Positions 6,561 to 60,231 of a stretch of 64,000 nucleotides of DNA are shown piece after piece. The DNA comes from Myrmaecium sp. VS I D KN 1 (taxonomy: Eukaryota; Ascomycota; Dothideomycetes; Valsariales; Valsariaceae). The first letter of the stretch is position 1, and every line of letters begins with the position of its first letter. The notes under the pieces are model-generated. The model saw only the letters and a program-made list of their open reading frames with translations. It was not told where the DNA came from and did no database searches. Location: assembly GCA_019775845.1 (NCBI GenBank), contig JADQAV010000038.1, positions 602,812-666,811 of the forward strand, given 5' to 3'. The position numbers and the translations under genes are program-made.

Positions 6561-9500
6561 TCAAACGGGCATCATACCAATCCCCCCACCCCCACCCCCA
6601 CCTCCACCCCCACCATATCCACGGCCACCCCCACCTCCCCACGAGCCTCCCCTCGCAACCGTCGTCGTCGTCGTCGTCGCACCACTCCTCTTCCTCGCCA
6701 CCCCTTTCTTCTTCGCGACCCCACCCGCAGCACCACCACTCGTACGACTCCTAGAAGAATGCGCCGCGCCCTTCCGCTGATACGCGCCATACCCGCTGCC
6801 GCTCCGCCGGCCACCGCCGGACCGAGCCGCCTTGGCATACCGGCCCGCCCCCGCGCGGGACGTGGTGGTGCCGCTGTTGCTGCCCGTCGTCGCTGCCGCG
6901 CCGGGGAGGTTGGTCTCGAACTGACTCGCGCGAGCGTTGAAGGCGCGGACCGCGGCGGGCGGTTGGTACGGGGCCGGGGCCGGGGCCGGGACGGAGGCGG
7001 AGACGAAGTACGAGGACCGCTGGTCGTCCGCCGCCGCCGCCATCGCCGCCGCCGCCACCTCGTCGAATTCTTCTTCGGCGAAGGCCTCCGAAGGATCCGA
7101 GGACGGGAACTCGCCGTAGTCGTCGTCGTCGTCGTCGTCGGAGACGAGGTTGACGACCTCGTGGTTCGGGTCCGCCGGTCGCTCGTCCTCGTCCTCCTCC
7201 TCGGAGGCCTCTTCGTCTTCCTCGTCCCCGTCCGGATCCGCCTCGTCGATAACGAAAGGGTTCCCGCGCTGACGCGCTGGCCGTGGTTCCGGCCGCGTGC
7301 CGCGCTGCTCTTTGGCAGTGGTTCTCTCGATGTCGCCAAGCTGCTGCTCCGCCTGCCGTAGGAGGCCGAGGAAGCGCGGGCCGTAGTGGCGGGCCATTTC
7401 CGGGCGGATGTGGGGGATCTGCATCAGCTCCTCAACGTTCTTCGGTGTGCGAATGAACATCTCTTGGAGAATGGTGTCGGAGAACGGCACTTCCCGCAAG
7501 GACTTGTCAACGAGGATTTTGCGCCCCACGTTTTTACCGAGCTCCATGAAGCCCTCCATGACATATCTGCGACTCTCGCTGAGTCCGCTTGCTGGGCCGT
7601 TGAGAACGATTGGCGGGCCCAGTTCTTTCCGTAGCTGCCGTGGTGCTGTGTTGACCGGACGTGCAGGCTTTGCGGGTTTGATCGGCTTCGGCGGCTTGAT
7701 GGGCCTTCGATCACGCACTGGTTCGAAATCGTCGTCCGCGGAGTCCTTAGCGTCATCATCGACGACGAAGGAGTCCTTCAGATATCCATTCGGATGTATC
7801 TCAACGTCAGAGTCGTCTTGCACCAACTTAGCCTTGCGCCGCCGTGAAGCAGCCTGTATTGGAGATGATACATAGGTTGAGATGGGATAGTCGGCCTTCG
7901 CAGCAGCGACGCCCGTCGCGCCCTTTTTCTTGGTGGACGTCGTCTTCGTGGCAGGTTTAGACTTCAGCTTGGTAGGTGACACGCGAACATGGAGTGTGAG
8001 GGACCGGCGGCCCGGGCCGAACAGGTTGCAGTTCTTCCCCAGGATGACGTATTCCGTGGGGAAACCGCTACGGTTCACCACGCGGTCCACATCAAGCGCA
8101 TCCTCCACGATAAGACGATGGAACAGCCGCTCCGCATCTCCGCGCTCAAACTCGGCACCAATACCATACTCCAGGAGCTCGTTGTGGCCTAGGTTAGTGA
8201 TCTTCTTCGACTTCGCGCCCCGGAAGACGTCCACGCAATGCAGCAGGGTGACCTGTTCATGCTTGATCTTCCGGACCAGGTCGATTGCCGATGCAGCGTA
8301 TTCGGTCAGATCGCGGTCCTCGAATTTCGAGGTCGAGTTGCAGTTGTCGCACGAACGATGGCAGTCTTCCCGACGGAAATGTTCGCTGAAGTAGCTGAGC
8401 ACCTGCACACGTCGACAGTCGGTGGTGTTCTCGCAGTATTGGATCACGTTGCGGAGCATCTGGATCTGGCGCTCCTGCTGCTCGAAACTGCCATCCCCGT
8501 CCTTGATCATCTTCTTCAAAATCGTCGCGTCTTGGTAGCCGTAATACAGGTAGCATCCGGAGCGCTTGCCGTCTCTGCCAGCTCGTCCGGTCTCTTGGTA
8601 GTATCCCTCCAAGCTCTTCGGAATGCTGTGGTGGATGACGAAGCGCACATCCGGCTTATCGATGCCCATGCCGAAGGCAATCGTGGCAACGATGACGTTG
8701 TGCTTGCCTGCTTGCCACTCCTCCTGGACTTTATTCTTTTCCTGCGCAGGCATCCCGGCGTGGTAATGGGCGGCTTTAATCCGATGTTCTTTGCGCAACT
8801 GCTCCGCAATCGACTCGCACTTCTTGCGAGAGAGCGCATACACGATCCCGCATTTGCCCGGATACATGCGGGTGATCGTTTCCGCGATGCTCGCCAGGAC
8901 CTCCTTCTCTTTCCCTTTTTGTCTGATTTCGTACGTGAGATTGGGTCGATTGAACGACTGCGTGAAGGTTTTGCATCCCTCGATGCCGAGATTGTGGATG
9001 GTGTCCAGTTTGACATTCGCAGTAGCCGTTGCCGTGAGTGCCATAACCGGCACCCCCGGGAACTGTCGCCGTACCTCGCCAAGGGCTTTGTAATCTGGAC
9101 GGAAGTCATGGCCCCATTGACTGACGCAGTGAGCCTCGTCAATGACAATCCGCGCAAGTCGATCACGTCGGTGTAGCGCCAGGAAAGCATTGATCATGCT
9201 TTGGTTCTTACTCAGCATCTCTGGGGTGACATAGAGTAGCTGGATGAACTGCTCAACGTCAGGCTCTTGCAAGGCATTCATGACGAAACGACGATGGTCC
9301 GCAGAACACTCTCCGTTGATGAAAAATGCTTGAGCGCCGATCGCTCGAAGATGTTGAACCTGATCCTGCATGAGACTCAGCAGCGGCGAGATGACAATGG
9401 TAACACCTCGCGTCTTGCCACTGCTGACGAGAGCTGGAAGTTGGTAGCACAAAGACTTGCCGCCTCCGGTGGGCATGAGCACGAATACATCCTTCCCGCC

Positions 9501-11969
9501 AAGAGTCGCGTTGATAGCTTCGAGCTGGTTTGGCCGGAAACCCTGCAGGCCGAAACGATGGAGAAGAACACGCTTGACTTCGTTCGACCACGGATGATTC
9601 ATCAGAGCCGCCGTCATAGACGAGCGACCTTTCGCGGGGGTTCGTTTGGCAGGTGGCTCTTGCGCAGGTTTTGCCTGCCGTATGATCGCGCTGGTGTGAT
9701 CGCCGAAAACATATTTATCCGTCTCTTCCCAGCTCACTGTGCTTCCGAACGTGCGATTCTCGACGTCTTCGGCGACATCGAGCATTTCCGGATCGAATTC
9801 GTCGAAGTCATCTTCATCATCTCTCACCGGCGTAGCCATCCGGTTGCTGAAGACTGCTTCGTCCTCATCGGACTCAATAAGCTGGGGGATATCATCGGGC
9901 ATATCCGGAGGCGGGAACCAATGGTCGCGAGGTCTGGGGCGGCTTTCCTCAGCAAACTTCCCTGGTATAGAAGGTGTCCTCGTCTGCTTCAGCGATGGTA
10001 ACTTCTGCTCGTTCGCACGGGAATCGGACTGCTTGAGCAATCGAGAAGAGGGCGTGTTGACATCGTTCGAAGGTGGTTGGGGGGAGGTAATTCGTATCGG
10101 TGATGCGGCAAATCGGGTCTTCTTTGAGGGAGACCTGGGTCTTGGAGCCGGAAGCTGAGTCTGTTGCACGAACTCGGTTTGCTTAATCGTGCTCGAGCTG
10201 GACAGCCCAGTGGCACTATGGCTGTCGAACACTGGCGTAACCTGCGTAGATTCGACAACAACATATTTGGAGCGCACTTCCTGTATTTCTTTCAATGTCC
10301 CTAGGCTTGTGAGCAGATCAGCAGCACCCAAGCAATCAACCATCTCCGCCTCGATCTCTTTCACAACGGCAATGGCCTTCTTATTTGCAACCTGGAGTTC
10401 ATCATCCGGCTCTATGCCATCCGTGAATGCAGCGATGATGCGTCTCTTCAGCTCCTCTTTCTCCTGACTCGGCTTGATGTACCTCTGGCGTAGCTCAAGC
10501 AGTCTTTCCAGCGCTTCGCGACATTGCTTGGTGCGTTGGATCTCCTCTCTCAGCTCCGGTGGAATGGGCTCTTCGGCTGCTACCACCTGGTAACACTGAT
10601 TTCCCAGATTCGCGGATTGTCGACTGAGGTACTGTAGATAGGCTGCTATATCGTCATCAGCCCAGGTCATGAAGCTTTTAACAATGTCGGAGTTCTGCTT
10701 CATTTGATGCCCGTCGCCTGTACTGGCAGAAGAAGGGACGTCTTGAAACTTTGCAGGAGAATTTTGCTTGAAGGGTGATGTAGCAGAGGCCTGCACACTC
10801 GGCAGCCGAGCAGACCTAGGAACGATCGGCCGCTCCACGTTGGAGAGGCCTGAGTTCGTCCGAGACGGGCTTCTGTGTCTAGATACAGCAGGAGATGGTT
10901 CAGCTCTGGAAAGTTTGGAAGGGGAGGTGTTCGCGCGCATCTTCGACGGACTCTCCAAGATGGCCTCCGGTTGTGTCTCCAGAGATCCGGACTCCACATC
11001 GTCATCCTCTTCCTCGGAGTCTCCAATGACCGTAAAATGAGGTCTGTGCTTAACGGGCGACGGCCGTCGTCTATCATGTTGGACCCGCTTCGGCGGATTG
11101 CTCACCACCGAGGGAACCCTGCTCAACTGTTTCCGTTTGCGAGGTTCCAATTCGATGCTCGTCCCGGTGGTATCGAAGTCCGCATCCTCGCCATACTCAT
11201 CATCCTGCTGCGCGCTATCGTCACCAGCAGTGGTAGACTCGGTAGATTCCTCGACGGCGTTGCCAGCTACTTGGCTATACGGAGGCGGCGGATCGGATGG
11301 AATCCCATCGACAGGAGTAAAGCGGCCAACCGTCGAACTGGTCGTGTTCGGAGCATTGATGCGTCGAGTGACAGTGCGTATCCCCGGGAGGTCGGCCTCA
11401 AATTCGCTGCTCTTTCTCTTTCTTCGGTTGCTGACGGCGACAGGGCTTGATCCTGGTTCGCCAGTCAAATCAATGGCTTCTATTTCCCAAGTATCTTGAC
11501 GCTCGTTTTTCGGTGCTGCCGATACCTCCCGTGCGGCCTTGACTGGCGACTGCCGGACGTATGAAGCAAACTCCTCCTGTCGATGGGTACTGACATGTCG
11601 GTCGGTGGCGGTCGATGTGGCACCGTATGAAGCACTTCCAGGCGTCTTCGTCCGAAGCAAAGCTTGCGAGAGCAGCCGGGGCTTCACAGCCGAGTTCGGT
11701 TCGGTCCTCAACCGAGCCATGTCGACCGCTGTGCCCGGTACTTCCTGGCCGGTGTGCGCTTCGACCGGCGGCGGCGACAGATGTGGGCGGTGTTCGAGTA
11801 CTCGACTTTGCGACAAAGGAGCATCGTTCGGGGTTAAAGATATTTCGTCAACCGGACGGCTGGTGGAAGGCGCTGTATCGGTCGACGGTACAAGGGGAGT
11901 CTGTGGCGGAATGAAGGGCTTCTCCGATAGCAACCAGGCGAGCTGTTCTCGAAGGTTGTTCCTCGTCAT
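6561..11969 (-). CDS. RecQ family ATP-dependent DNA helicase (Sgs1/BLM/QDE-3 type)
   Basis: An uninterrupted frame of 1802 residues when started at the ATG at 11969. I chose it over the upstream in-frame ATG at 12164 because the protein then begins MTRNNLREQLAWLLSEKP, which resembles the N-terminus of fungal Sgs1-type helicases. A long acidic, Ser/Pro-rich N-terminal half precedes the helicase core. Walker A is GGGKSLCYQ (about residues 833-841) and Walker B is DEAH (about 945); the RecQ motif (ETGRAGRDG), zinc-binding Cys cluster, winged-helix RQC and an HRDC domain (about 1440-1545) follow in order. The C-terminus is unusual: acidic runs (DDDDDDDYGEF) and a long Gly-rich tail ending in a polyglycine run. 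Such helicases unwind DNA with Top3-Rmi1 in homologous recombination and replication restart, and the Neurospora homologue QDE-3 is also needed for quelling. No intron is visible. Confidence 0.93.
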   Translation of the reverse strand: MTRNNLREQLAWLLSEKPFIPPQTPLVPSTDTAPSTSRPVDEISLTPNDAPLSQSRVLEHRPHLSPPPVEAHTGQEVPGTAVDMARLRTEPNSAVKPRLLSQALLRTKTPGSASYGATSTATDRHVSTHRQEEFASYVRQSPVKAAREVSAAPKNERQDTWEIEAIDLTGEPGSSPVAVSNRRKRKSSEFEADLPGIRTVTRRINAPNTTSSTVGRFTPVDGIPSDPPPPYSQVAGNAVEESTESTTAGDDSAQQDDEYGEDADFDTTGTSIELEPRKRKQLSRVPSVVSNPPKRVQHDRRRPSPVKHRPHFTVIGDSEEEDDDVESGSLETQPEAILESPSKMRANTSPSKLSRAEPSPAVSRHRSPSRTNSGLSNVERPIVPRSARLPSVQASATSPFKQNSPAKFQDVPSSASTGDGHQMKQNSDIVKSFMTWADDDIAAYLQYLSRQSANLGNQCYQVVAAEEPIPPELREEIQRTKQCREALERLLELRQRYIKPSQEKEELKRRIIAAFTDGIEPDDELQVANKKAIAVVKEIEAEMVDCLGAADLLTSLGTLKEIQEVRSKYVVVESTQVTPVFDSHSATGLSSSSTIKQTEFVQQTQLPAPRPRSPSKKTRFAASPIRITSPQPPSNDVNTPSSRLLKQSDSRANEQKLPSLKQTRTPSIPGKFAEESRPRPRDHWFPPPDMPDDIPQLIESDEDEAVFSNRMATPVRDDEDDFDEFDPEMLDVAEDVENRTFGSTVSWEETDKYVFGDHTSAIIRQAKPAQEPPAKRTPAKGRSSMTAALMNHPWSNEVKRVLLHRFGLQGFRPNQLEAINATLGGKDVFVLMPTGGGKSLCYQLPALVSSGKTRGVTIVISPLLSLMQDQVQHLRAIGAQAFFINGECSADHRRFVMNALQEPDVEQFIQLLYVTPEMLSKNQSMINAFLALHRRDRLARIVIDEAHCVSQWGHDFRPDYKALGEVRRQFPGVPVMALTATATANVKLDTIHNLGIEGCKTFTQSFNRPNLTYEIRQKGKEKEVLASIAETITRMYPGKCGIVYALSRKKCESIAEQLRKEHRIKAAHYHAGMPAQEKNKVQEEWQAGKHNVIVATIAFGMGIDKPDVRFVIHHSIPKSLEGYYQETGRAGRDGKRSGCYLYYGYQDATILKKMIKDGDGSFEQQERQIQMLRNVIQYCENTTDCRRVQVLSYFSEHFRREDCHRSCDNCNSTSKFEDRDLTEYAASAIDLVRKIKHEQVTLLHCVDVFRGAKSKKITNLGHNELLEYGIGAEFERGDAERLFHRLIVEDALDVDRVVNRSGFPTEYVILGKNCNLFGPGRRSLTLHVRVSPTKLKSKPATKTTSTKKKGATGVAAAKADYPISTYVSSPIQAASRRRKAKLVQDDSDVEIHPNGYLKDSFVVDDDAKDSADDDFEPVRDRRPIKPPKPIKPAKPARPVNTAPRQLRKELGPPIVLNGPASGLSESRRYVMEGFMELGKNVGRKILVDKSLREVPFSDTILQEMFIRTPKNVEELMQIPHIRPEMARHYGPRFLGLLRQAEQQLGDIERTTAKEQRGTRPEPRPARQRGNPFVIDEADPDGDEEDEEASEEEDEDERPADPNHEVVNLVSDDDDDDDYGEFPSSDPSEAFAEEEFDEVAAAAMAAAADDQRSSYFVSASVPAPAPAPYQPPAAVRAFNARASQFETNLPGAAATTGSNSGTTTSRAGAGRYAKAARSGGGRRSGSGYGAYQRKGAAHSSRSRTSGGAAGGVAKKKGVARKRSGATTTTTTVARGGSWGGGGGRGYGGGGGGGGGGGIGMMPV

Positions 11970-13066
11970 GAGGACAGTGCTATGTCCATTCGTTATCCGG
12001 CATGAGGGTATCCGCTGCACTCTCTTGCCAAGGGACAACGAGCCGGGGTGTTTGTCGGGGACGTTTGTACTCCGGATGTTTCTTCGTGCTGTGCCTAATC
12101 TTTGAACCCCTCGCGACAATCGCGTCCGTTCACGCGTGGCCCGGTAGATCTTCGGCCATGACAATCAAACCGGATCGATTGCTGCCTTGATGCCCCGCTG
12201 CCTTTCTGCCTTGCTGCCTCGATGCCTCACAGCCTTACACATTTCCTTGCATTCACATAAACACGTTCCAGAGACGCCTCTACAAATAGGGAATCAAGAC
12301 TTTAAGGGTATCTTCAAAGGTAGTCAGTTCAAATCAAGAAGCCTGGGTGATGATACTAGTAGAGGGTTGGCCCTTCAGATTCGCCTTGTTCCTCTCTGGA
12401 GTCCATTCGATATACTGGCTGCTGTCATCTCTTCCGAGTGGACAACAATCGAAGAAGCTCTCACTATCGCCTCCAATATACCATCAATAGTACAGTAGTA
12501 TGTACTATCTAGTACAGTAGAGTGACTATCAAAAAAGCGACTCTCACCTTTCCCGAATTCCACGTCTGTTTCATTAAATATCCCCCGCATAGGAACTCCC
12601 CCACTCCTCAGAGTCCGTCCCGCCGTCTTCTCACACCACGCTACCGGTATAAAAATGGGCCACTGCAGTACCTACGGCGCCGGACCGAAGAAGAAGGATG
12701 CGGACGGGAGCTATTTATAAGATATAGCGTTGGTGATGACGACCTCAGCGTCTGCTTCTCCGCCCCCGCCGCTTCCACCGCATCCGCCCCCGCCATCCGG
12801 AGGGGTCCCGGCCGAGAAATAGCATCAAATCCCAACGACGACAACGTTCACTAGTGATAGTGGGGAAGATATCACATGCACTCCTGCCTGTCTGCCAACG
12901 CTATATATCTACTGTATGTACTCCCAGCAGCCTCGGAACCTTTCAACACCTCATCTCCTTCCGATTACTAGAACTCGTGGTTGGATACGTCAGCCAGCCA
13001 TCCCACCACTGCCAGCAAAGAGCCACGAAGAACAAGAGCATATAGCATGACCACGAACCCACCAAC
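11970..13066. promoter_or_regulatory. Divergent promoter region between RecQ and PLP decarboxylase
   Basis: The interval lies between the two divergent start codons and holds no convincing gene. TATA-like words TATAAAAA (12648-12655) and TATTTATAA (12712-12720) lie 412-420 and 347-355 bases before the decarboxylase ATG. If the RecQ start were instead at 12164, the first 195 bases would be coding. Confidence 0.5.
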
Positions 13067-14659
13067 ATGCTTCCAACACCAGAGGACAAACAGGCCATCG
13101 CCTCCGCCCGCGCCGAGCTGAACGCAAGCTACACGACCTCCAATGACAACGAGCCAACCCACGTCCTCCCCAGCGCGGCCGCCCTCGCCCGCGCGCAGGA
13201 GAAGCTCATCACGCACCTCCCCTCCGCCGGCCTGGGCGTCCCAGCAACGATCCAGCACCTGCAAGACGACATTGTGCCCGCGCTGAACGCGAACTCGCGG
13301 TCGACGGTCTACTACGGCTTCGTGACGGGCGGGGCGACGCCCGTCGCCAGCCTGGCCGACAACCTCGTCACCGCCCACGACCAGAACGTGCAGGTGCACC
13401 TGCCGGCCGAGAGCGTCGCGACCGCGGTCGAGGACGGCGCGCTCGTCCAGCTGTGCGAGCTGCTCGCCCTCGACCCGGCCTGCTGGGCCCATCGCACCCT
13501 CACCACCGGCGCCACCGCCGGCAACGTCGCCGGCCTCGCCCTCGGCCGCGAGTTCGTCGTCGCCGAGGCCACCTCCGCCGTCCAGGGCACCTCCGCCCCG
13601 GCCGTCTCCAGCGTCGGCGAGCTGGGCCTGTACGCCGCCATGCGCGCCGCCGGCCTCGACCGCATCCAGATCCTGACCACGACGCCGCACGCCAGCCTCA
13701 GCAAGGCCGCCAGCGTCGTCGGGCTCGGCCGGGCGGCCGTGCAGGACGTCGGCCTCCCCGACGCCCCCCACCGCTTCGACTGGGCCCGTCTCGAGGCCGC
13801 CCTCAAGACCCCCCGCACCGCCAGCATCGTCGCCGTCAGCTGCGGCGAGGTCAACGCGGGCCGGTACTCCACCGACGGCCGCGCTGGCCCCGCCACCGAT
13901 ATGCGCGCCCTCCGCCAGCTCTGCGACCTCCACGGCGCCTGGATCCACGTCGACGGTGCCTTCGGCATCTTCGCCCGCCTCCTCGACGGCGTTGACAGGG
14001 GCGCCGAAGGCCCGTACGCCTCCCTCCTCGCCGGCACCGGCGACATCCACCTCGCCGACAGCATCGCCGGCGACTGCCACAAGCTCCTTAACGTCCCCTA
14101 CGACTGCGGCTTCTTCCTTTCCCGCCACCCGTCCCTCGCCCCGCTCGTCTTCCAAAACCCAAACGCCGCCTACCTCTCCGACAGCGGAGCCGGAGGGGCC
14201 GCCGCCACCATCCCTTCCCCGCTTCACATCGGCCTGGAAAACTCCCGCCGCTTCCGCGCCCTGCCCGTCTACGCCACCCTCGCCGCCTACGGCCGCGCTG
14301 GCTACCGGGCCATGCTCGAGCGCCAGGTCACCCTCGCCCGTCGCATCGCCGTTTTCCTGCACGCCCACCCGGCCTACGAGCTACTCCCGGCCCGGGCCCC
14401 GACGGCGGCCGAGGCCGAGGTCGTCGCCGATATCTTCATCGTTGTGCTGTTTCGGGCGCGGGATGCCCGGCTGAACGCCGAGCTCGTCCGGCGGATCAAT
14501 GGCGGCCGGGAGATCTACGTTTCCGGCACGGCATGGGAGGGCCGACCGGCGGCCCGGTTCGCGGTGAGCAATTGGCGCGTCGATGTCCAGCGGGATCTGG
14601 CGAGGGTGAAGAGGGTGCTGGAGAAGGCTGTCGCGGAGGAAGATGTGTTAGCCGTCTAG
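13067..14659 (+). CDS. Pyridoxal-phosphate-dependent group II decarboxylase (aromatic-L-amino-acid/tyrosine decarboxylase-like)
   Basis: Single-exon gene of 530 residues. The N-terminal part has the group II decarboxylase pattern (STVYYGFVTGGATPVASLAD), the middle contains TTGATAGNVAGLALGRE, the phosphate-binding loop region, and the HVDGAFG motif in which Asp contacts the pyridine nitrogen of the cofactor. The Schiff-base lysine is in SIAGDCHKLLNVPYDCG (about residues 338-354). Members remove the alpha-carboxyl of amino acids such as tryptophan, tyrosine, DOPA or glutamate; the substrate cannot be read from the sequence. Coding GC at third positions is extreme, which opens long meaningless frames on the other strand. 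An upstream ATG at 13047 is out of frame. It converges on the repeat-bearing secreted protein gene. Confidence 0.88.
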   Translation: MLPTPEDKQAIASARAELNASYTTSNDNEPTHVLPSAAALARAQEKLITHLPSAGLGVPATIQHLQDDIVPALNANSRSTVYYGFVTGGATPVASLADNLVTAHDQNVQVHLPAESVATAVEDGALVQLCELLALDPACWAHRTLTTGATAGNVAGLALGREFVVAEATSAVQGTSAPAVSSVGELGLYAAMRAAGLDRIQILTTTPHASLSKAASVVGLGRAAVQDVGLPDAPHRFDWARLEAALKTPRTASIVAVSCGEVNAGRYSTDGRAGPATDMRALRQLCDLHGAWIHVDGAFGIFARLLDGVDRGAEGPYASLLAGTGDIHLADSIAGDCHKLLNVPYDCGFFLSRHPSLAPLVFQNPNAAYLSDSGAGGAAATIPSPLHIGLENSRRFRALPVYATLAAYGRAGYRAMLERQVTLARRIAVFLHAHPAYELLPARAPTAAEAEVVADIFIVVLFRARDARLNAELVRRINGGREIYVSGTAWEGRPAARFAVSNWRVDVQRDLARVKRVLEKAVAEEDVLAV

Positions 14660-35707: not shown

Positions 35708-36819
35708 CTAGGTTGCGCTACCAAAGTCCTCCTGGGCATCTGGCCTATCCCAACTGCCTTGCTCCAATCGTCTTACCCGCTCCAATAGATCCCGGACTCT
35801 TGCGCCGTACTTGGCCTTTGTCTGTTCTTGCAGCTTAAACGTGCGCGTGAAGGCATCCACCATGAACGGATGCAGTGGCGCTTTCCGCGTTTTCGTGTAG
35901 TCATAGACCACGATGTCTTCAACGCATCTCGCAGCCGTCCGACGGTGCTTCTCGGACAGAATGATCACGTCGAGGATGAAGTGGTCCATATCTGCAGTAG
36001 GCTTTGATCGGAGCTTGTGGAGAACAGTCACGCGATCTGGCCATCTCATGGGCTTGAAGGAATCGGACATTAGTACATCAATAGATTCGGGGATTCATCT
36101 TTTGCCTTACAAACTTGTAGTCCGTACGTATACTTCGTAGGATGAGGCCAATGCCGTTAGGCGTGGTCAACTCTTTCCACTCGCGGCTGTGGGCTGGGTC
36201 AAGGATATTTGCAAAGTTCAAAGTCCAATTGACTCGCGCTGACTCCGCGTAGCGGTTGTAAGTAACGTTGTTGACATGTCCTACCGTTTCCCGAGTTAGC
36301 TATGACACCATATTGACTGCGATGTGCTGCTGCCATACCCTACGAAATATGGTCAATGAGTATATCACCGCCGATCTTATGAACAGCAACTTACCATGCT
36401 ATCCTGAACGTCCATTCCCCCTGTCAGCTTCAGATTTTTCGTGTTCAATGTCATTATCGGCATACCATCTCTCCCCATACGACCTCCTGTCTGTAGAGCC
36501 CCCGTCTTCCTTTGCCGGTAAGAAAGCCTTCACTGCCAGCGACCAATTCCCTCCAGCCCGTGGCCGTCTCCTGCAAGATAGAACCTGCCTCGACGGTCTG
36601 CTGTTGATTCAGACCAAACATGATACACTTGCCAATCCTGGTCCTGAGATCGGACAGCCATCGCGAGCTAAGGGAGGCTGTAGCTGGTTCCTCTGATCGG
36701 GTAGCGGAAGAGGGGTCGGCAACTGAGGAGAAGGAACAACAACAGGATCTGCCAGTGGGCGATGAGACGCTGGAAGATTTCAGGATCCTTGCCAGAGGAT
36801 AACGACCACGGGAGTTCAT
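35708..36819 (-). CDS. HotDog-fold thioesterase-like protein with 9-nt and 1-nt exons
   Basis: Five exons on the minus strand: 36466-36819, 36395-36403 (9 bases), 36339 (1 base), 36111-36280 and 35708-36052, giving 292 residues. The joined core reads VVWGEM-DSM-G-HVNNVTYNRYAESARVNW, a classical 4-hydroxybenzoyl-CoA thioesterase/YbgC-like HotDog signature with Asp and His in place. It continues SIRTDYKF-PMRWPDRVTVLHKL and CVEDIVVYDY. The N-terminal ~60 residues are Arg/Ser-rich with no acidic residues at first, compatible with a mitochondrial presequence. Introns are 62, 55, 58 and 58 bases, each with GT-AG ends; TACTAAT, GCTAAC and TTGAC branch words are visible. Without the single G exon the frame is lost before HVNN, so the small exons are required for the conserved reading. 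It likely hydrolyses an acyl-CoA; substrate unknown. Confidence 0.85.
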
Positions 36820-49114: not shown

Positions 49115-52100
49115 TTAGAAAGCACCACGGATCTTTGCATACAACTCCGTGTCCAAGAAGTTATAGCTGGGATCCGTGAAGCAGAAGGGAGCGCGGAGAA
49201 GGGTGTCGGCGGTGGGACGTTCGGAAGGATCGCTGTATCTCTAGGTTAGCCTCATGCTACTTGACTTCTTCTCGCAAAGCGGTGATACTCACATCGTGAA
49301 GCAGTCGTACATGAAGCTCAGCGCCGCGGGCGAGATCTTGCTGCTCACGTCGTCCGGGATGGGCGGTGCCTGGTTGAGGCTGCCGAGCTTGTAGATCGCC
49401 CCGATGGCCTCCTCCTTGCTCCACGGCCGGCGGCCGGCGAACATCTCGAGGACCACGCAGCCGAGCGACCAGATATCTACTTTCGCGGAGTAGCCCTGGC
49501 CGTGGGACCGGATGACCTCGGGCGCCATCCAGAAGACGGAGCCTTGCATGCTGTTGGTGACGTCGTTGCCGTAGATGTTGTCCGTGCGCTTGGAGATGCC
49601 GAAGTCCGAGATCTTGCACGTGCCGTCGAGGTCGAGGAGGATGTTGTCGGCCTTGAGGTCGCGGTGGAGGATGCCTTGCCCGTGGAGGTAGGCGAGCCCG
49701 TTGAGCGTCTGACGCGTCAGCGACGAGACGATGGGTTCGTCGAATTTGCCGTGCTTGCGCAAGCAGCTCCCGACGCTTCCACCGGAGATATACTCGAGGA
49801 AGATCGAGATGGAGTACTCTTTGCGCTCGCAACCAAGATATTGCACGATATTGGGGTGGTCCAGGTTCTGCATGGTGTCGATTTCCGAGTCCAGCGAACG
49901 GACGAGCTCCTTCATCTTGTCCTTATCCTGGCCGGCTGCTTTGGGGTTCACTTCGACTTGTTTGACCGCAATAAGTTCACCGGTGGTGATGTTCATACCA
50001 AGGTAGACGCGGCCAAATGTGCCTTTGCCGATCAGTTGACCCTTCATCCATTTAAACGTAGGCTGGCGCTGCGGTACGGGGAGATGATCCTGAGGGATGG
50101 ACTCAAGATTCATCAGCCGACTTCCTCCACGGTGAGGTTTCACCTGCTCGATCCTGGCATTGAACATCTTGGTACTCTTCCTCCGTACTATATCCCCGGA
50201 TTTCAACGTGTTGATCCTCGAAGGCCCCGGGAGCGGGGGTTTGGGCCCCGAATGATACTGGTTCTTGACCACTTCACGGATGGACTTGGTACGGCCAAGC
50301 CCACCAGCTTTCCGCATATTTCGCTGTGCCATAGACTGCACCGTATCGCCTCTCTTCAAGTTAGCCGCACTGGCGCCAACCGTGCCATCGTCGGCGGTGG
50401 ACATCGGCGTTGTAGCACGGCTGGTATCCGTCGGGGGCTTCGGCACCTCATTCGAGGTCGTCGGGGACGGCGGCTCGCCGAACTCATCCTCCACCATGGG
50501 CTGATCAAGGTTGACGTTCGGGAAGAACTCGTCAAGGTGTTCCACAAGTGCCTCTGGGGGAGGTCTGTTCGCCCAGACGTCGCTGGCAAAGGATTCCCGT
50601 CGCAAGAAGCGACTGCTTTCATCCGGAGAATCGATAGACCAAGTGGCAGATGCAGCTGACTCGGAGTTGAACTTGTCATTCGCGTCTGGAGTCATGGTGT
50701 TCTCAGATGCAGCACTTTGAGGGACGGAAGCTTGGTCGGGAGAGTTGAAGGCCACCCGTGACCTAGAAGTCTTGAGAGTAAGAGATGGTCGAGGGGTTCG
50801 ACCAGGCGAAGCATCCTCTGTGCCCTTGGAAGGTGGCGTCGAGGGCGTGTTTTTCGCCAAAGGCTTCGCAAACAAACCTTCATCTGAATCGTCATCGGAG
50901 TCTTGGGGCTCGATCCGTGGAGAAGTCTCGTGGAAGGGGACGTGTGCTTCCTTGAAGTCGAGAGTAGGGCCCCAGACGGAGTGACGGGAAGCTTGACGAG
51001 CGAGCCCCTCCTTGGCTGGTTGGGCAGAGTTCGGACTGACATCGGCGGATCGCGGTCTCTGCTGCTGCTGTGGGTTATATGCTTTGAAGCTCGGTTCGGC
51101 GGGAAAGCCATTTTGCGCAAGTTGAGGGGTAGTGGTCGATTCGTTGCGGGTTTTGGCGCCTGGAGAAGCTTGATAGTTAGGAACCTGGAACGAAACATTC
51201 CCTTTGCTCATCGTAAAGCGCGGGCTGTGAGGAGACCCACCTTCACTATGTCTGCCGGCGTTATCCGCACCAAAATCAACGGCGGCCATGGCGCGCTGCG
51301 AGTGCGCCTTCATGCTGATTTCAGCTGCAGGCGAAGCCGTCGGCTTCACTGGCGGTTTCGCGGTTGGCGCGCCGACCATTGAACCCTTGATACCCGCGCC
51401 AACAAGCGCCGCTCCGATGCCGGACATCACTCCAGCCGGTGCAGCTGGGATGGCTTTTCGTCGAAGCACAGCGTCCTCGGACGGACCGGCGACTGCATCA
51501 CCAGGATGCTTCTTTGGCTGCCCTTCATCACCCGGCCACGAACTGCGCGTGTCCTTCTTCTTCGTCAACGAGTTAGCCCTGATCGAAGTGTTAGAGTCTG
51601 GAGGCACCGGAGGAGGGTTCCTCATCGGTTCCCATCTGCGGGAATGATCTTCGAACGGTCGCCGCTTATCCTCGTAGGGAGAATCGCGCCGTTCATCGAA
51701 GTCGATCACGCCCTGCCTGATGATACCGAGAGCATTGGGATCCGGGGAAAGTGCGTCGGGCGATTCCTTGGGCGCCTTCTTCCTCAGCTGCTCTCGTCTG
51801 CGCCGGAGATACTCTTCACCTTTGCGCTCCGCTTCGCGTCGATGCTCCTCAGCCGCTTCAAGCAGATCCTTGCGTTCCGTCTCTGTCGGCTCGCTCTCAG
51901 CCGCCCACGATTTCCGATCACTTTCCTCCAACCGCCGTGCAACCGCATCCGGATTAATACCTTCATTCTTCCCAATGTTTCGCAACTCAGCAGCTTTGCT
52001 AGGCACTAGTGTCGATTCTCCCGAGGGCGCGACGGGAGAGTCGAGATCCGGAACGTGACTGTGGCGGGAGTATGCACCGTCTTCGGGTGGCGGCGGGTTG

Positions 52101-54274
52101 AAGTATGCTTTGAAGGGAGAGGGCTGCACGTTGAAGGTGCCGCCCAACGCAGCAGAGCCCGGTGCGGACGCTGGAATATTGACGAAGATTTTAAGGTCGC
52201 CAAGGGCATTCGCATACTTGTCACGGGCCTTGACAAGATGCTTATCGGAGAGACCTTCATCGTGTTCACACTGCCCCGGCGAGGTAAGATGCAACGAGAT
52301 GTCGGATGTGTTAGCGATGCCAAGACCTTCGCACACCGCATCCCGCAATGCCACAGCAGTTTCAGCATCAGTGACGTCCACTAAGCGGTAATTCCAACCG
52401 TCCGGCGTAATGAAAACAAACTTCTTTTCTCGTCGCTTGCTCGAGCCGCGATGGCGCTTAGCACTCTCGTTGTGCGATGTTCGCGATGGTGGACGCTCGT
52501 TGAGGGAGGTTTCACTGGAGTTCATTTTCGAGAAGGGCGCATTGAACGGGAAATGTCGCGACACCACAGGGCTGGTCGGTGAATCAAGGCTTGACTCCTC
52601 TGGAGACGGGTGGTTCTCATGGTTCTTCTTGTCTCTTCGCTTCCATTTGTCAAAGAAGCCTCTATGCTGCGTAGTGGCACTCGTCGGGATCTCGCCGCTG
52701 TTGTGACGCTGGGCATTCTCCGGAGGTTGCCGTGTCCCTTCAAGACCATTTCGTCGGCCTTCACCAGTTTTGGCAGACCCGGCATATAAAGGCACGCTGG
52801 ATTCTGAGCTGTTTGTGCGGTTGTGGCTGTAGTACCTGGTCTGACCTCCCGAAAGCCGTGCGGACGTTGTGGCAGGACTGTTTTGGGGGCTCGGTTGATG
52901 GATAGCTTCTCGATGGTTCATGTCGCTAGATGTGTTTGGACTATGTTTCTTCGAGGACACTCCTTCCAGGCTTCTCAAAGCCTTCTCGGTGTACACGTTC
53001 CGGTGACCGTTGTCCAGGAGGTACTCGCTTGGCTGGTTGAGGGTCGGTACGGTGAAGTTACGCTGTGTCGAGAGCCGTTTCGGGTTCGCAGATGAAGGGG
53101 AATTGAAGGACACCGGCAAATGCCGCCCGGGGCTATCATCCTCACCGCCTCCAGCAGTTGTCGGAGTTGACCCATATTCAGGCAGATGCGGCGAATTCTC
53201 CAGGGTCCCTTCGGTCCCTGCACTATGCAGGAACTGCAATGAAGCACGGCGGGTCGGTGCAGCCTTGGCACTGTTTGCATTGCCCGATTCGACGATGGAG
53301 CGGACAAACCTCCTTAGCCTACGGCCTTCCTCACGCTCCCGCTTCTCGTCGTAGGGCGTGCCGCTTGCCTGGCACTGCAACTTCAGCTGCGGGAGCAGAA
53401 CCTCATGGGTCATTGCGACATTTCCCTTGGTTCCGTGACCTTTTCCAATCTCCAGGAACGCGGAGCCGTGCAGATCCAGGGTCTTAAAGGCGTCTTGCCA
53501 GGTGCTGGAGAAGCCGTTATTAGCTAGCCAGCTCAACACGCGGTCCAAAGGCCATTGCAACCCAGCATCTGGGTTTGGAGAGACCGGCGTATTCCCAGCG
53601 GTATCATTTGCTCGAGGAGGATAGATGCCGTTGTGGCCGTGCGTATTGGCCAGAGTTGCGGTGGGCGGGCCTGGGGAGTTGTATTCTTGAGCATCTCGGA
53701 GGTTCATAGCAAGACCTTGTCGACTCGTCTGCGCTCCCGGCAACGCACCATAGCCAGTATGACCCTGCGATTCATCACTTGGCGTAACAGTATGCACATT
53801 GTTCCGTGAGCTATCCACATTGGCCGAATATTCACTGTTCCCACTGAAATATGTCGGTTGGTCTGGATGCGGACGGGAAGGGGTATGTAACGGCGGAATT
53901 CCTACTCCTGGTCCGAAAGACTCGCCGAATGGTATATACGTCGCGGAGGTTAGCGGTGGATCGGCCGGCGGAGGAGGCAAAGAAGGTTGGTAAGGCTGAT
54001 ACGCATTCGGGTTGTAAGGCGCGTACTGGGCCGTGGTTGCAGGCGGAGGTGGGTATGCCGTCCCGCGATTCCAGTAGCCGGTGATCGGGGTTGCCGGAGG
54101 TGCACCGCCTGGGGGTGGAGGTGGTAGTGCCATGCCATGTTGCTGGGCGGATGGCATGCGGGGCGGAGGGGGCGGAAGGGCTATGCCGTGAGCGCCTGGG
54201 GTACTGGCCATTTGCGGCGGAGGCGGAGGGACATATTGCCCTCGGGCAGTATCTGGCTGATATTGACCATGCAT
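49115..54274 (-). CDS. BCK1: MAP kinase kinase kinase of the cell-wall integrity pathway (Bck1)
   Basis: Two exons on the minus strand: 49293-54274 and 49115-49238, 1701 residues. A Pro/Gly-rich N-terminus (PPPPPQMAS, ALPPPPPRM) leads to a SAM-like domain (WPLDRVLSWLANNGF to LLPQLKLQCQ, about 238-301). A Ras-association/ubiquitin-like domain (KKFVFITPDGWNYRLVDV, about 615-675) and a long disordered regulatory region follow. The kinase domain starts at about 1406, with LIGKGTFGRVYLGMN (P-loop), VKQVEVNP (Lys), HRDLKADNILLD (about 1535), DFGISKR, GSVFWMAPEVI and DIWSLGCVVLEMFAG. The last intron joins CFT-I-YSDPSERPTADTLL through the second AG of a CTAGAG acceptor; the first AG would shift the frame. 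Bck1 is activated by protein kinase C and phosphorylates Mkk1/2, which activates the Slt2/MpkA MAP kinase. Confidence 0.93.
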
Positions 54275-56899
54275 GGTAGCCGATTTCCTTCAACAACCGG
54301 ACCTCTCTGCGGCAGGTATCGATTATGGCCAGTAGGGGAATGCGCGCCTCGTTAAGAAGACAATTCGGTTCCGAAATCCGAGCACAGATCTGTGATGGTT
54401 ATGTGGCAGCCAAAAATGCTATGAAAGAAAAGATACTGTAAATGAAAAGGCAGGGGTTGATCAGACGCGCTCGAGAGGAACCACGTCAGCCAGGACGGCG
54501 CGCCGAGTTGTATTGGCAGACAGAATCGTAAGATGACCGAGGAGAAGGGAACTCGAAGATGCTTGACACATTCGAGGGAGAGGCTTGTCTCGCTCGAATC
54601 GTCATATCCGGTCAACTGGAGAAGAAGAAGACGGGTTTGGCTTCAATGTTGTCGAGGGGTCCAATTCCCAACCCTTTACCTTATGACGCTACAGCAAGAT
54701 TCCTCCCTACGGTCACTATCGCAGGGCAGTGTGCCGGGGACTACCAGTTGCGACACCAGCGTCGCGAGAAGGCCTGCCTTCTCGAACCAGAGCGCGAGCA
54801 CCACGACGTCGTCGAAGTGACCCTGTGCAATCCGGGTGGACGGCGCAAACACACCCCCTCAGTATGGATCGGGACGGCAGCAGGACAGACGACGGAGCCC
54901 TCGAGGGAGGGAGGAGGCCGCGGCCCTGGACGGCAACAGAGGCAGGAGAGGATGCTGGAGGGCTGATATAGATCGGAAATGACGGCGGTTCTTTTTTTGG
55001 CCGTGCTAGGCCAGGCCGGTGGTGGTGAGGGGGGAACAGGCAGGGCAACGATGACAGCTACTCCTCACAAGGGACGGGGTGCAGGGCCTGACGGACGACG
55101 GGAGACGACGCGACCGGCCAAGGGCACGCCGCGACTCGTGGTGAAACAGCGGGGAGAAGGCCGATGGAGCGGTCTCGAGTCGGTCGGGGACGGGACGGCT
55201 ATAGGAAGAAGTCGGAGGGAGCAGGGCTGGGTAGGTTGGACTTCCTGTACAATAGGGAGAGAGCGTAGGTGGAGCGCACGACAGGGAGGGAACGGAAAAA
55301 TGTCTGGCGAGCCCAGCCGGCACTGGAGCACTGGAGGGCAGCGTTCGAGGTGTCCACCAGGTGCCACAGGAGCAGCTTTCTCTCAAGGGGCCACGATCCG
55401 CGACCCGAATCCAGGGCCAAAAACGGTTGGCAAGGCCGGTCGCGTCGAAACGTTCGATGAGCGGGAACGTGCGCGCCGGGTTGGCCTGATAAAGGCTTGG
55501 TGCACTGCAGACATTGAAGAGAACGACGATGCGAGAATGATGGGGCGCCAGGGCAACAACGACGAGAGGACGTTGGTTGGGCTGGGAAGCGAACAATTAA
55601 AAATGTCACCTCACCAGACCATGATCAGAGAGCTCCATAGCACACAGCGTTTCGCAACGTCTGATGTTCCAATCTTCCGTTGCATGCTATCCTTTTTTAT
55701 CTTCATTTAGATTTTTTTTTTCTTTCTCTGCTTCCGCCTCATAGGTCCTTTTTTTCCTCATCCGAATCCCGCGGCAGCGAAGTGATGTGACATTCAGTCC
55801 ACTGCTAGTTGACGATGATAGATAGGTACGTGCACAGATGAAGCATCATTTGCCTCCGATGTGAGATGTAAATGTGGGAATTGACGAGATAATTCGTCCA
55901 CTAAGAACTGTAAGATGCCTAGTGTGAGTGGGTGCGTGTCTGGGTACAAGGTAGCAGCGATGTTATGGATGTGATGTAGGAGTTTATGTGATCTCGTAGG
56001 AGTTGTAAATACTGTATGTAGCTATGGAGCCTGAGATTCGGTGTAGAGAAATTCTGCAACTCAGGGACAGCGGCCCTTCCGGACACGACACATCACTTGT
56101 GGTGGATCAAGCATCCATACAACGATCAAATCATCTATACCCACACATCGCCATCGTCCATGGATGGCATGTGGAGGTTAGGTGTGGCGCAGTCAAGGAA
56201 GAATGTGAGGGGATTTGATTTTCGTGAGTGGCAGAACTCTGGTTGCTCACACAGGGCATCTGCGCCGTCCCGTACCGGCCCTTCTCCTGCACATCGGCAC
56301 GGCACCGGGCGGCGGTTCCACCGAGCGAGCCGGCTGGGCATGCCGCATGGGACTGGCAGGCGGCAGCAGGCGGCGGGCAGGGCGGTGGCAGCGAGAGGGA
56401 GGGGCGGCCGGGGGCACTCGGAAGCTCTACGGGATTGACTAAGCTGCACCCGGCTACAGACCGTCGTCGGATCGGCCGTCAGAAACTCGGGCTGGACGGG
56501 CGAGGGCCGGGCGATGGACGGGTAATTGCGGACGTCAATGATGCGGTCGATAAGGTTGAGGTTCACTATTATGTGGCCAGCCCAGGGTCCTCGTCGCACC
56601 GTGTTTTTCGGCGAGACAGCCGGAGGGGGTGCTCGTACGGAGTTTTCACCGTAGCGACCGGTAAGGTACAGAAGCTGTTGGACTCCTTGCTTGTGCGGCC
56701 ATTCTCGACCGCATGGAGGAGTGGTAGGTAAGTATGATGTCGGATACGGATACATACAGAGAGTGTTCGTAGCTAAAGGAAACTGTAGGCTGTAATTTAC
56801 CTGCTTCAACAAGGCTAGCAGTCAAAGCGGTCGGCGGAAGGCGGTTGGTGGTTAGGTAGGAGTGGTAGGTTGTTTGATGGTGGTGCTGGTCCCTACCTA

Positions 56900-57239: not shown

Positions 57240-59047
57240 ATGTCCAACGGCAACGACCTCGTCACCGCTTCGCTCCAGAAGCCCATGGACGTTGCGGAGT
57301 ACCTCTTCCGCCGTCTGCAGCAGGTCGGCGTCGAGTCCATCCACGGTCTTCCCGGCGATTATGTTAGTACCTGCATCACCATCCCAACCCTCCCAGCCTT
57401 CCCCTCCACACAAAGAATAGCCGACTGACCTCTTGCCACCAACAGAACCTCGTCGCCCTCGACTACGTCGCCAAGCTTGGCCTCCACTGGGTCGGCAACG
57501 TCAACGAGCTCAACGCTGGTTACGCCGCCGATGGATATGCCCGTGTGAAGGGTATCTCCGCCATGGTCACCACCTTCGGTGTCGGTGAGCTCTCTGCCGT
57601 CAACGCCATCGCCGGTGCCTTCTCCGAATACGTCCCCATCGTCCACATCGTCGGTTACCCCCACACCGCCTCCCAGAAGAACGGCATGCTTCTCCACCAC
57701 ACTCTCGGCAACGGTGACTTCAACGTCTTCAAGAACATCTCCAGCGAGATCTCTTGCAACGTTGCCATGCTCAACGATGCCAACAACGCCGCCACCCTCA
57801 TCGATAACGCCATTCGCGAGTGCTACATCAAGTCTCGCCCCGTCTACATTGCTCTCCCCACCGACGTCGTCCAGAAGAAGATTGAGGGTGCCCGTCTCGA
57901 GACTCCTCTCGACCTTGAGTTCCCTCCCAACGATGCTGAGAGGGAAGACTACGTCGTCGACGTGATCCTGAAGTCCCTTCACGCCGCCAAGAACCCCGTC
58001 ATCCTCGTTGACGCTTGTGCTATCCGTCACAGGGCTCTCAAGGAGACCGACGCTCTCGTCAGGAAGTCTGGCATCCCCACCTTCGTCGCCCCCATGGGTA
58101 AGGGTGCTGTCGATGAGACCCTCCCCAACTACGGCGGTGTCTACGCCGGTAACGGCTCCAACGCTGGCGTTCAGGAGCGCGTTGAGTCGGCCGACCTTGT
58201 CCTCTCCATCGGTGCCATCAAGTCCGACTTCAACACCACCGGTTTCACCTTCCGCACCAACCAGCTCGCCACCATCGACTTCCACTCCTACATGGTGCGT
58301 GTGCGCTACTCCGAGTACCCTGGTATCCGCATGAACGGTGTCCTCCGGAAGGTCACCGAGCGCATGGGCCAGCTTTCCATCCAGCCTGGTCCCATCCCCT
58401 CCAACAAGATCCCCGACGCCGAAGTCAACACCACCGACCCCACAATCACCCAGGCCTGGCTCTGGCCCCGTCTTGGCCAGTGGCTCCGTGAGGGCGACAT
58501 CGTCATCACCGAGACTGGTACCGCCAACTTCGGTATCTGGGAAACCCGCTTCCCTCGCGGCGTCACCGGTATCTCTCAGGTCCTTTGGGGTTCCATTGGT
58601 TACGCTACCGGTGCTGCCCAGGGTGCTGCCCTCGCCGCCAAGGAGCTTGGCCGTCCCCGCACCATCCTCTTCACTGGTGACGGTTCCTTCCAGCTGACCG
58701 CCCAGGAGGTCTCCACCATGCTCCGCAACAACCTCAACCCCATCATCTTCGTCATCTGCAACAACGGTTACACCATCGAGCGTTTCATCCACGGCTGGAA
58801 GGACGAGTACAACGACGTCCAGGAGTGGAGGTACAAGGAGCTCCCGCTCGCCTTCGGCGCCAAGCCCGAGCAGATCCAGACCTACACGATCAAGACCAAG
58901 GAGGAGCTCAACACGCTCTTCAAGAACGAGAGCTTCAACCAGAGCGAGCAGCTCCGCTTCGTCGAGCTCGTCATGCCTTGGGACGACGCCCCGGTTGCTC
59001 TCCAGAAGACCTGCCAGGCCGCCGCCGAGAGGAACGCTGCTTTGTAA
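57240..59047 (+). CDS. PDC1: Pyruvate decarboxylase
   Basis: Two exons, 57240-57362 and 57446-59047 (574 residues). The first exon ends HGLPGDY and the second begins [18 protein letters not shown], a usual site for this family. Visible motifs are the cofactor-activating Glu in [19 protein letters not shown], the active-site histidine pair in [12 protein letters not shown], and the thiamine-diphosphate motif [19 protein letters not shown] with ICNNGYTIE. The enzyme converts pyruvate to acetaldehyde and CO2 in the cytosol, as the first step of ethanol fermentation. Codon use is strongly biased to C-ending codons, with very few A-ending codons, the mark of high expression. The symbol follows yeast usage; paralogues cannot be excluded. 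It converges on GPI1. Confidence 0.95.
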
Positions 59048-60231
59048 GCGTCTGCATTTGATATTACGGTCTCAAAAAAAAAGCGGAACGAAGAATCTTC
59101 TTGATATCTCTATAGACTTTGGATACGGATTCCGCTTTTTGGTTCCCATTGGGTTTTTTGTATTGGCGACAATGTTTTAGGAGATTCTCCCCTTGGTTTT
59201 TTGTTTCAATATTAATTTCCTCTTTCTCTTTTTCACTTGCTACATTATCATGAGACGCATGAATGGGTATGACATAAATCTCCTATCTATATAGAAAGGG
59301 ACAGAAAAAACCTTTACCTTTTGATTCTACAAAAATCAAATCTCTTTCAAAATCTTTTTTTACCTTAAAAAAAGCCAGCATCAAATAATTTGGATTGTCC
59401 GAGCCACCTTGCGGAGATCATGATAAAATAAAAGGTGACGTGAGGAGGGGCCGATGATATGGAAGTGGGGTCCGACCGGTGGCGGCGGCGGCGGCGGGGC
59501 TTTTCGGCTTCTTTTTTCTATGCATTCTTTCCGCAGGTCACCTACTCCTAGGTGGGACACCGAAGCGGATCTGATAAGGAAAACCTGCCCCCCCCCCCCC
59601 CCTCTCCTCTAGAGGAAAACTGCTGCGGAAAAAAATCTGATCCCTGCCCTCTCCGCTCCGTGCCTTGGAGCTTTTGTGAAAAAAAGCTTGGATCCTTGCT
59701 TGGTGGTTTCGGAGGGCGATTGGAGGGGGGTTTTACTTTTTTTTCTTCTTATCGCCGATCTGATTACGAGCACACGGACACAATCTCCGTTGTTGGTCCG
59801 AGGGGTGGGCGAGGGGGTAGGGTATGGCGGCAGGTGCAGGCGCAGCGGCAGTATCAGCGGTAGCAGCCTTTACTTTTGCCATGTTTTCCTTTGATAGGAG
59901 TACATACGGTAGTAATGGGGAAAGAATCAGCGGTAGGTTTGATTCGAATGAGGGGGATGTGTATCAGATAGAAAGAAAACAGAATGAAAAACATAAAGTG
60001 GAAATTAGGAATATATATAAAGATAGTACATGTATCTATATTGATAAAAGGCTTCAAACCGTGATAAACACCCAACGTGACAAAAGCGAGACGAGATCCA
60101 TTCAGTTTATTTATGCATTGATGCTACTTCATGCAGTCAAACTAAAATCAATATATATAATCGTATACCATACAATATGTACAATCCATTACATCCACCA
60201 ACCCCTTCCCTCAAAACCACAGCACAGCACA
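59048..60231. other. Convergent 3' region PDC / GPI1 with homopolymer runs
   Basis: 1184 bases containing a 15-base C run (59588-59602), a GGC triplet run near 59479-59497, several A and T runs of 6-9 bases, and AT-rich sequence near 59270-59400 and 60000-60180. A long frame crossing 59824-60639 has no protein-like features and runs antisense into GPI1. Confidence 0.45.
59588..59602 (+). repeat. Poly-C tract
   Basis: Fifteen consecutive C bases; its exact length is a likely place for sequencing error or strain variation. Confidence 0.8.

What the first reader, a model, noticed from the sequence alone, without database searches (positions are those of the whole stretch)
36281..36465. Thioesterase-like gene needs a 9-base exon and a 1-base exon (near-stwintron arrangement)
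On the minus strand the conserved HotDog signature WGEM-DSM-G-HVNN can only be read if four pieces are joined: exon 1 to 36466, a 9-base exon (36395-36403), a single G at 36339, and the exon starting at 36280. The two introns flanking the single G are 55 and 58 bases, each of normal fungal size, with GT and AG ends and branch-like words (CATTGAC, GCTAAC). Removing the whole 114-base stretch as one intron loses one base and breaks the frame before the catalytic HVNN. It is either a true one-nucleotide exon or a stepwise (recursive, stwintron-like) removal in which the first splice creates the G|GTATGG donor of the second.
Basis: partly seen in the sequence, partly recalled or inferred. Interest (0 to 1): 0.82.

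Follow-up and report, generated by a model that had tools for sequence, protein, structure and literature searches.

The report
Probable one-nucleotide exon in fungal thioesterase
A fungal enzyme gene can only spell its conserved active-site motif if the cell splices in a nine-base exon followed by an exon of a single base, a very rare kind of exon that gene-prediction programs easily miss; the splicing itself has not yet been observed.

Summary
On the minus strand a 292-aa hotdog thioesterase-like protein (Pfam 4HBT_2) reads WGEM-DSM-G-HVNN only if a 9-nt exon (36403-36395) and a single G (36339) are spliced in. A search of all GT-AG removals of up to three steps, nested ones included, found one solution: G36339, between introns of 55 and 58 nt (median of 18 confident window introns: 56). 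Both fit a published fungal intron motif. Of 380 AG-N-GT sites in the window this one alone has signals this good.

By splice signals alone the 4-nt exon ranks slightly first, so protein constraint decides.

It is not a stwintron: the second donor is intact before any splice and either order works. It resembles the single-nucleotide exons of Arabidopsis APC11 and Fusarium CYP621A. No RNA or fungal orthologue could be checked; a base missing from the assembly or gene decay remains possible (about 0.1).

The parts
36466..36819 (-). exon 1 of the thioesterase-like gene, ATG to ...VVWGEM; serine/arginine-rich N-terminus that looks like a mitochondrial presequence (inference)
   Evidence: open frame, 118 codons, phase 0 at its end; the start codon is inferred
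36404..36465 (-). intron 1, 62 nt, GTATGC..CAG, branch-like GCTGAC (A 20 nt before its end)
   Evidence: full match to the published fungal U2-intron motif
36395..36403 (-). 9-nt micro-exon GATAGCATG (Asp-Ser-Met), carrying the conserved Asp
   Evidence: Asp in 26 of 30 PF13279 loci aligned, Asn in the other 4
36340..36394 (-). intron 2, 55 nt, GTAAGT..TAG, branch-like ATTGAC (A 13 nt before its end)
   Evidence: full match to the published motif
36339..36339 (-). single-nucleotide exon G, first base of the Gly codon GGA of GHVNN
   Evidence: only base whose retention gives DSMGHVNN; best-scoring of 380 AG-N-GT sites in the window
36281..36338 (-). intron 3, 58 nt, GTATGG..TAG, branch-like GCTAAC (A 15 nt before its end)
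   Evidence: full match to the published motif; donor score 1.02, lower in 8 of 29 predicted window introns
36111..36280 (-). exon 4, (G)GA-CAT-GTC... HVNN to ...DYKF
36053..36110 (-). intron 4, 58 nt, GTAAGG..AAG, branch-like ACTAAT
   Evidence: full match to the published motif
35708..36052 (-). exon 5, PMRWPDRV... to the stop codon
   Evidence: (292-aa translation)

Best explanation
This is a functional hotdog-fold (4HBT_2) thioesterase-like gene of a filamentous fungus whose active-site motif WGEM-DSM-G-HVNN is split by three short U2 introns, leaving two consecutive micro-exons of 9 and 1 nt. The 9-nt exon carries the conserved Asp and the 1-nt exon is the first base of the Gly codon. Each flanking intron is recognised as a unit of its own (intron definition). 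Because two spliceosomes cannot sit on sites one base apart, introns 2 and 3 are removed one after the other, in either order; intron 2 first is the natural co-transcriptional order. Using the two outermost sites at once removes 114 nt, shifts the frame and gives an early stop, predicted to lead to nonsense-mediated decay. Shown here: the sequence, its uniqueness as a solution, motif fit, chance estimates and family spacing. Inferred: that the mRNA is made, the order of removal, decay of the mis-spliced form, and enzyme function.
For: Unique solution among GT-AG paths of up to three steps. Both introns match a published fungal intron motif, which 3 of the 3 rival introns tested that avoid the one-nucleotide exon in frame (95, 110 and 67 nt) do not. 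Lengths of 55 and 58 against a median of 56 in 18 confident window introns. Signals as good as here at 1 of 380 AG-N-GT sites of the window, this one; in 9 of 20,000 shuffles; intron-N-intron 0.05 per simulated window. PF13279 score 88.7 bits against 80.1, 79.2, 79.0, 78.1, 75.6 and 74.5 for six rival products. No insertion or deletion between the Asp and His columns in 30 of 30 PF13279 loci aligned, out of 47 matches in 10 genomes found with the Pfam profile. PDB relatives carry similar WxxMD[SA]xGHVNN motifs. The rest of the 292-aa frame is intact. Precedent: Fusarium CYP621A has the same AGGGT one-nucleotide exon with reads across it (PMC12940212).
Against: There is no transcript evidence and no fungal orthologue: no genome is held for the window, viral contigs gave no relative and no fungal collection is offered. 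By splice signals plus codon score alone the 4-nt-exon path ranks first (-3.2 against -4.4 nats, ranks 1 and 2 of 43). If the frame is ignored, a single 114-nt intron scores better than the two introns (-3.09 against -5.44 nats) and also matches the published motif. The strongest sites are the outer pair (donor 5.24, branch and acceptor 3.66), and intron 3's donor is weak. My gene finder, started from recalled generic splice profiles and run unassisted, did not call the full gene, only 36070-35708 as one exon; codon bias here is weak.
Confidence: 0.8

Rival explanations
1. There is no one-nucleotide exon. A single 114-nt intron lies here and one base is missing at the junction, either as an assembly error or as a real deletion in a decaying gene; the AG-G-GT in the intron is a coincidence.
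For: A 114-nt intron with GTAAGT and GCTAAC..TAG is itself a good intron and, frame apart, scores better than the two introns. One confident window intron is 117 nt, and two others predicted are 164 and 238 nt. The genome's sequencing method and RNA are unknown.
Against: AG-G-GT with signals this good arises in 9 of 20,000 shuffles and nowhere else among 380 AG-N-GT sites of the window. No intron-G-intron in 20 simulated windows. Both halves have the typical length. The rest of the gene is intact over 292 codons, and two frames of 1,867 and 1,666 codons elsewhere in the window are uninterrupted.
Confidence: 0.11
2. Intron 1 uses the acceptor 5 nt further on (36399), leaving a 4-nt exon CATG, and the 114 nt go as one intron: WGEM-H-GHVNN, in frame without any one-nucleotide exon but without the conserved Asp.
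For: Best-ranked of 43 in-frame structures by splice and codon score.
Against: 79.0 against 88.7 bits to PF13279. It loses the conserved Asp and shortens a spacing without gaps in 30 of 30 aligned family loci. The 67-nt intron does not match the published motif, by a branch-to-acceptor distance just over the limit, and its acceptor lies 5 nt behind a CAG.
Confidence: 0.04
3. Intron 2 ends at 36300, a 95-nt intron, so that LTRETV is inserted before GHVNN; an ordinary two-intron structure.
For: In frame, GT-AG.
Against: Branch and acceptor score -3.89 against 0.88 and 3.66. No match to the published motif. It makes the branch word GCTAAC partly exonic. 80.1 bits. It puts six residues into a stretch with no insertions in 30 of 30 aligned family loci.
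Confidence: 0.03
4. A genuine stwintron: an internal intron interrupts a splice element of an external intron and must go first.
For: Two short U2 introns back to back, and use of the outer sites gives a frameshift, as in [D1,2] stwintrons (PMC9024468).
Against: No donor, branch or acceptor element is interrupted. The removed bases are not contiguous, since G36339 is kept. Both orders work. The published [D1,2] motif finds nothing in the window.
Confidence: 0.02

Closest known systems
Single-nucleotide exon of Fusarium CYP621A genes (Nelson and Syed 2026, PMC12940212)
   Same: Nuclear fungal gene; the same AG-G-GT core; total interval about twice the median intron (139 nt in F. graminearum, 114 here); the base completes a Gly codon of a conserved motif and restores the frame.
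   Different: Unrelated gene; there the central base of the Gly codon, here the first base; there 20 orthologues (24 genes in the discussion) and 18 reads, here one sequence without RNA; here a 9-nt exon lies directly upstream.
Single-nucleotide exon of Arabidopsis APC11 (Guo and Liu 2015, PMC4674806)
   Same: Constitutive one-base exon required for frame; the authors argue for intron definition with sequential removal.
   Different: Plant; base A; total interval 422 nt; shown by cDNA and mutants.
[D1,2] stwintrons of Hypoxylaceae (PMC9024468)
   Same: Two adjacent short fungal U2 introns that need two reactions; use of the outer sites gives a frameshift.
   Different: There the inner intron splits the outer donor and the order is obligatory; here both introns are complete and separated by one exonic base.
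Recursive splicing in animals (ratchet points, RS-exons) (recalled; only the listing and start of abstract of PMC6224609 seen)
   Same: Successive removal with a donor at the junction.
   Different: Ratchet points leave no base and serve very long introns; here one base stays in the coding sequence and both introns are of normal size.

Membership tests
single-nucleotide exon (as in APC11, CYP621A) | one base flanked by AG and GT with two complete introns of acceptable size | tested here: met
single-nucleotide exon (as in APC11, CYP621A) | the base is required to keep the reading frame and a conserved motif | tested here: met
   PF13279 scores of six rival products lower
single-nucleotide exon (as in APC11, CYP621A) | present in the mature mRNA | not testable with these tools
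   no RNA data available
single-nucleotide exon (as in APC11, CYP621A) | conserved in orthologues | not testable with these tools
   no fungal genome collection; no relative found in viral contigs
stwintron ([D], [L] or [A] type) | an internal intron interrupts the donor, branch or acceptor of an external intron | tested here: not met
   definition from PMC9024468
stwintron ([D], [L] or [A] type) | internal excision necessarily precedes external excision | tested here: not met
   both orders possible in sequence; real order not observed
4HBT_2 thioesterase-like superfamily (PF13279) | profile match over the curated cut-off | tested here: met
   88.7 bits against a cut-off of 25.5, positions 1-122 of 122
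4HBT_2 thioesterase-like superfamily (PF13279) | acyl-CoA or acyl-ACP thioesterase activity | not testable with these tools
   needs an assay

The most novel reading that the evidence does not exclude
The tandem 9-nt and 1-nt exons form a fidelity gate on the active site. Productive sequential splicing competes with direct use of the two strongest, outermost sites, which yields a stop 107 nt upstream of the last junction and hence decay, and skipping or trimming of the 9-nt exon yields in-frame but Asp-less, dead enzyme. The amount of active enzyme would then be set by splicing kinetics.
Probability: 0.12. Interest if true: 0.75.

Novelty: new member of a known kind. Interest (0 to 1): 0.5.

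Why it matters
One-nucleotide exons are the lower limit of what the spliceosome can define as an exon. In the held library I found two nuclear precedents, one of them fungal (searches; most listed papers were not opened). A second, unrelated fungal gene with the same AG-G-GT core would suggest that such exons recur and are overlooked, since annotation can replace them by wrong in-frame exons, as it could here. The tandem 9 + 1 arrangement inside an active-site motif is a compact natural substrate for asking in which order abutting introns are removed and how often the outer sites are joined instead.

Tried and rejected
Whole genome of the window: none held. Relatives in viral contigs: 1 stretch matched a pattern, none was a relative. 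The genome-contig scan kept the best 80 of 506 relatives, bacterial and archaeal, but its pattern required the motif spacing, so I did not use them as evidence on spacing; I used 10 of the 80 as handles for a Pfam-profile search free of that bias (30 of 47 matches fetched). Of those 30 rows, L081 (E 0.28) is probably the wrong reading frame and L109 (E 0.0099) is doubtful; both were kept in the counts and also show no gap between the Asp and His columns.

Stwintron reading: rejected by enumeration with GT donors. With GC donors allowed and introns as short as 20 nt, 14 paths in all end in the same kept G (6 of the 14 were printed; the 4 extra ones seen nest a short GC intron in intron 3); with a minimum of 35 nt only the two plain orders remain. 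RNA structure of the region: nothing unusual (z 0.55). An unassisted gene finder did not recover the gene. Papers on microexons in Pezizomycotina: 2 listed, not relevant by title and start of abstract, not opened. One stwintron paper holds neither 'thioesterase' nor 'microexon' (PMC5639578), another neither 'thioesterase' nor 'micro-exon' (PMC9024468). The paper on a single-nucleotide intron shift (PMC5587772) is not held. The species was not identified; that it is a filamentous ascomycete is inferred from intron size and motifs and from families in the window (RdRP with the fungal PH-like domain, Gpi1).

Full report
What is there. The minus strand of 36819-35708 encodes a protein of 292 residues in five exons, the single base counted as one. 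It matches the 4HBT_2 thioesterase-like superfamily, PF13279, with 88.7 bits over the whole profile (185-residue part; 87.1 bits for the full protein). The nearest solved proteins are named thioesterase or conserved hypothetical protein (5byu, 2fuj, 5dio, 3qy3), with motifs such as WRDMDSMGHVNN. The N-terminus is rich in serine and arginine and may be a mitochondrial presequence (inference). The neighbourhood looks like housekeeping: a RecQ-type helicase, an RNA-dependent RNA polymerase, a class II tRNA synthetase, an LRR frame followed by an endonuclease/exonuclease/phosphatase frame (CCR4-like, recalled), a methyltransferase, a protein kinase and Gpi1 (searches scanned 20 long frames; 9 of the 20 had a Pfam match).

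The observation. Between the codons for WGEM and HVNN lie intron 36465-36404 (62 nt), GATAGCATG (36403-36395), intron 36394-36340 (55 nt), one G (36339), and intron 36338-36281 (58 nt). I enumerated the ways of removing up to three GT-AG introns from the 9-nt exon to HVNN, nested and in any order. Exactly one product encodes DSMGHVNN, the one that keeps G36339, and it is reached by removing the two introns in either order.

More than chance. A small gene finder, started from recalled generic fungal splice profiles and retrained on 18 confident introns of the window without this locus, gives a median intron of 56 nt. The two introns fit, with donor scores 5.24 and 1.02 and branch-plus-acceptor scores 0.88 and 3.66; donor 1.02 is low, but 8 of 29 predicted introns lie below it. 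Under a motif published for filamentous-fungal U2 introns (PMC9024468, section 5 read), introns 1 to 4 all match, and the window holds this intron-N-intron arrangement once, against 0.05 per simulated window (20 simulations). Of 380 AG-N-GT sites in the window (112 AGGGT), only this one reaches its signal score. Shuffling the interior of the 114 nt gives an AG-G-GT with signals this good in 9 of 20,000.

Rivals inside the sequence. 43 in-frame GT-AG structures exist. By splice and codon score the best is a 4-nt exon CATG with a 114-nt intron (-3.2 nats); the reading with the one-nucleotide exon is second (-4.4); the third is at -9.6. If the frame is ignored, one 114-nt intron scores better than the two short ones (-3.09 against -5.44). 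The protein decides: 88.7 bits against 79.0 for the 4-nt exon, 80.1 for LTRETV, 79.2 for VR, 78.1 for skipping of the 9-nt exon, 75.6 and 74.5 for two more. In 30 PF13279 loci (of 47 matches in 10 genomes, found with the profile and not by the motif) the Asp is present in 26 and Asn in 4, Gly in 23, His in 19, and none has a gap between the Asp and the His column. A catalytic Asp of 4HBT, mutated in a YbgC-like enzyme of core DTD-x2-GVV, is described in PMC12794305 (passages); that it is the Asp aligned here is recalled, since the passages do not say which of the two it is. 5byu and 5dio differ by Asp to Ala at this place, which looks like an active-site mutant (inference). So the 9-nt exon most likely carries the nucleophile.

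Mechanism. Both introns are complete and of normal size, so each can be recognised by intron definition. Sites one base apart cannot be occupied together, so removal must be successive, the argument made for APC11 (PMC4674806, parts 1 and 2 of 3 read). The donor of intron 3 exists before any splice and is not improved by removal of intron 2 (1.02 before, -0.57 after). The first splice therefore does not create it, and the arrangement fails the definition of a stwintron, in which a splice element is interrupted and the order is fixed (PMC9024468, passages). The published [D1,2] motif finds nothing here. Joining the outer sites removes 114 nt and leads to a stop (first base 36220) 107 nt upstream of the last junction, a likely target of nonsense-mediated decay (inference). 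Keeping intron 2 or intron 3 also leads to an early stop.

Comparison with what is known. Searches for one-nucleotide exons (open-licence PMC papers only; 22 and 11 papers listed) show two nuclear precedents by title or text read: Arabidopsis APC11 and, in 2026, CYP621A of Fusarium (PMC12940212, parts 1 and 2 of 3 read), also AG-G-GT and also in a Gly codon of a conserved motif; its authors call it the second one-nucleotide exon and the first fungal one. Mitochondrial single-base exons are listed too (for example PMC5436844, listing only); the other listed papers were not opened. The Fusarium authors propose that loss of a base near a junction was rescued by a cryptic AGGGT. Here two halves of median intron length with a branch word each may fit two former introns better, but orthologues are needed to tell.

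Verdict. Probably a real one-nucleotide exon, a new member of a known, very rare kind, made more unusual by the 9-nt exon beside it. Unproven without RNA; the main alternative is a base missing from the assembly or gene decay.

Noticed in passing
57362-59071 (-) and 57368-59044 (+): Two long open frames (570 and 559 codons) overlap almost completely on opposite strands; the minus-strand one has no Pfam match, the plus-strand one was not scanned. The gene finder calls a gene on each strand there.
   Followed up: no
13046-14656 (+): Frame with a partial pyridoxal-dependent decarboxylase match (profile positions 154-361 of 375), opposite to a predicted minus-strand gene with no Pfam match in the frame scanned (12971-14380).
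   Followed up: no
6564-12164 (-) and 49292-54289 (-): Very long uninterrupted frames (1867 and 1666 codons; RecQ-type helicase and protein kinase domains), which argue for good base accuracy of the assembly.
   Followed up: partly
window 1-64000: No tRNA gene was found in the 64 kb by ARAGORN.
   Followed up: no
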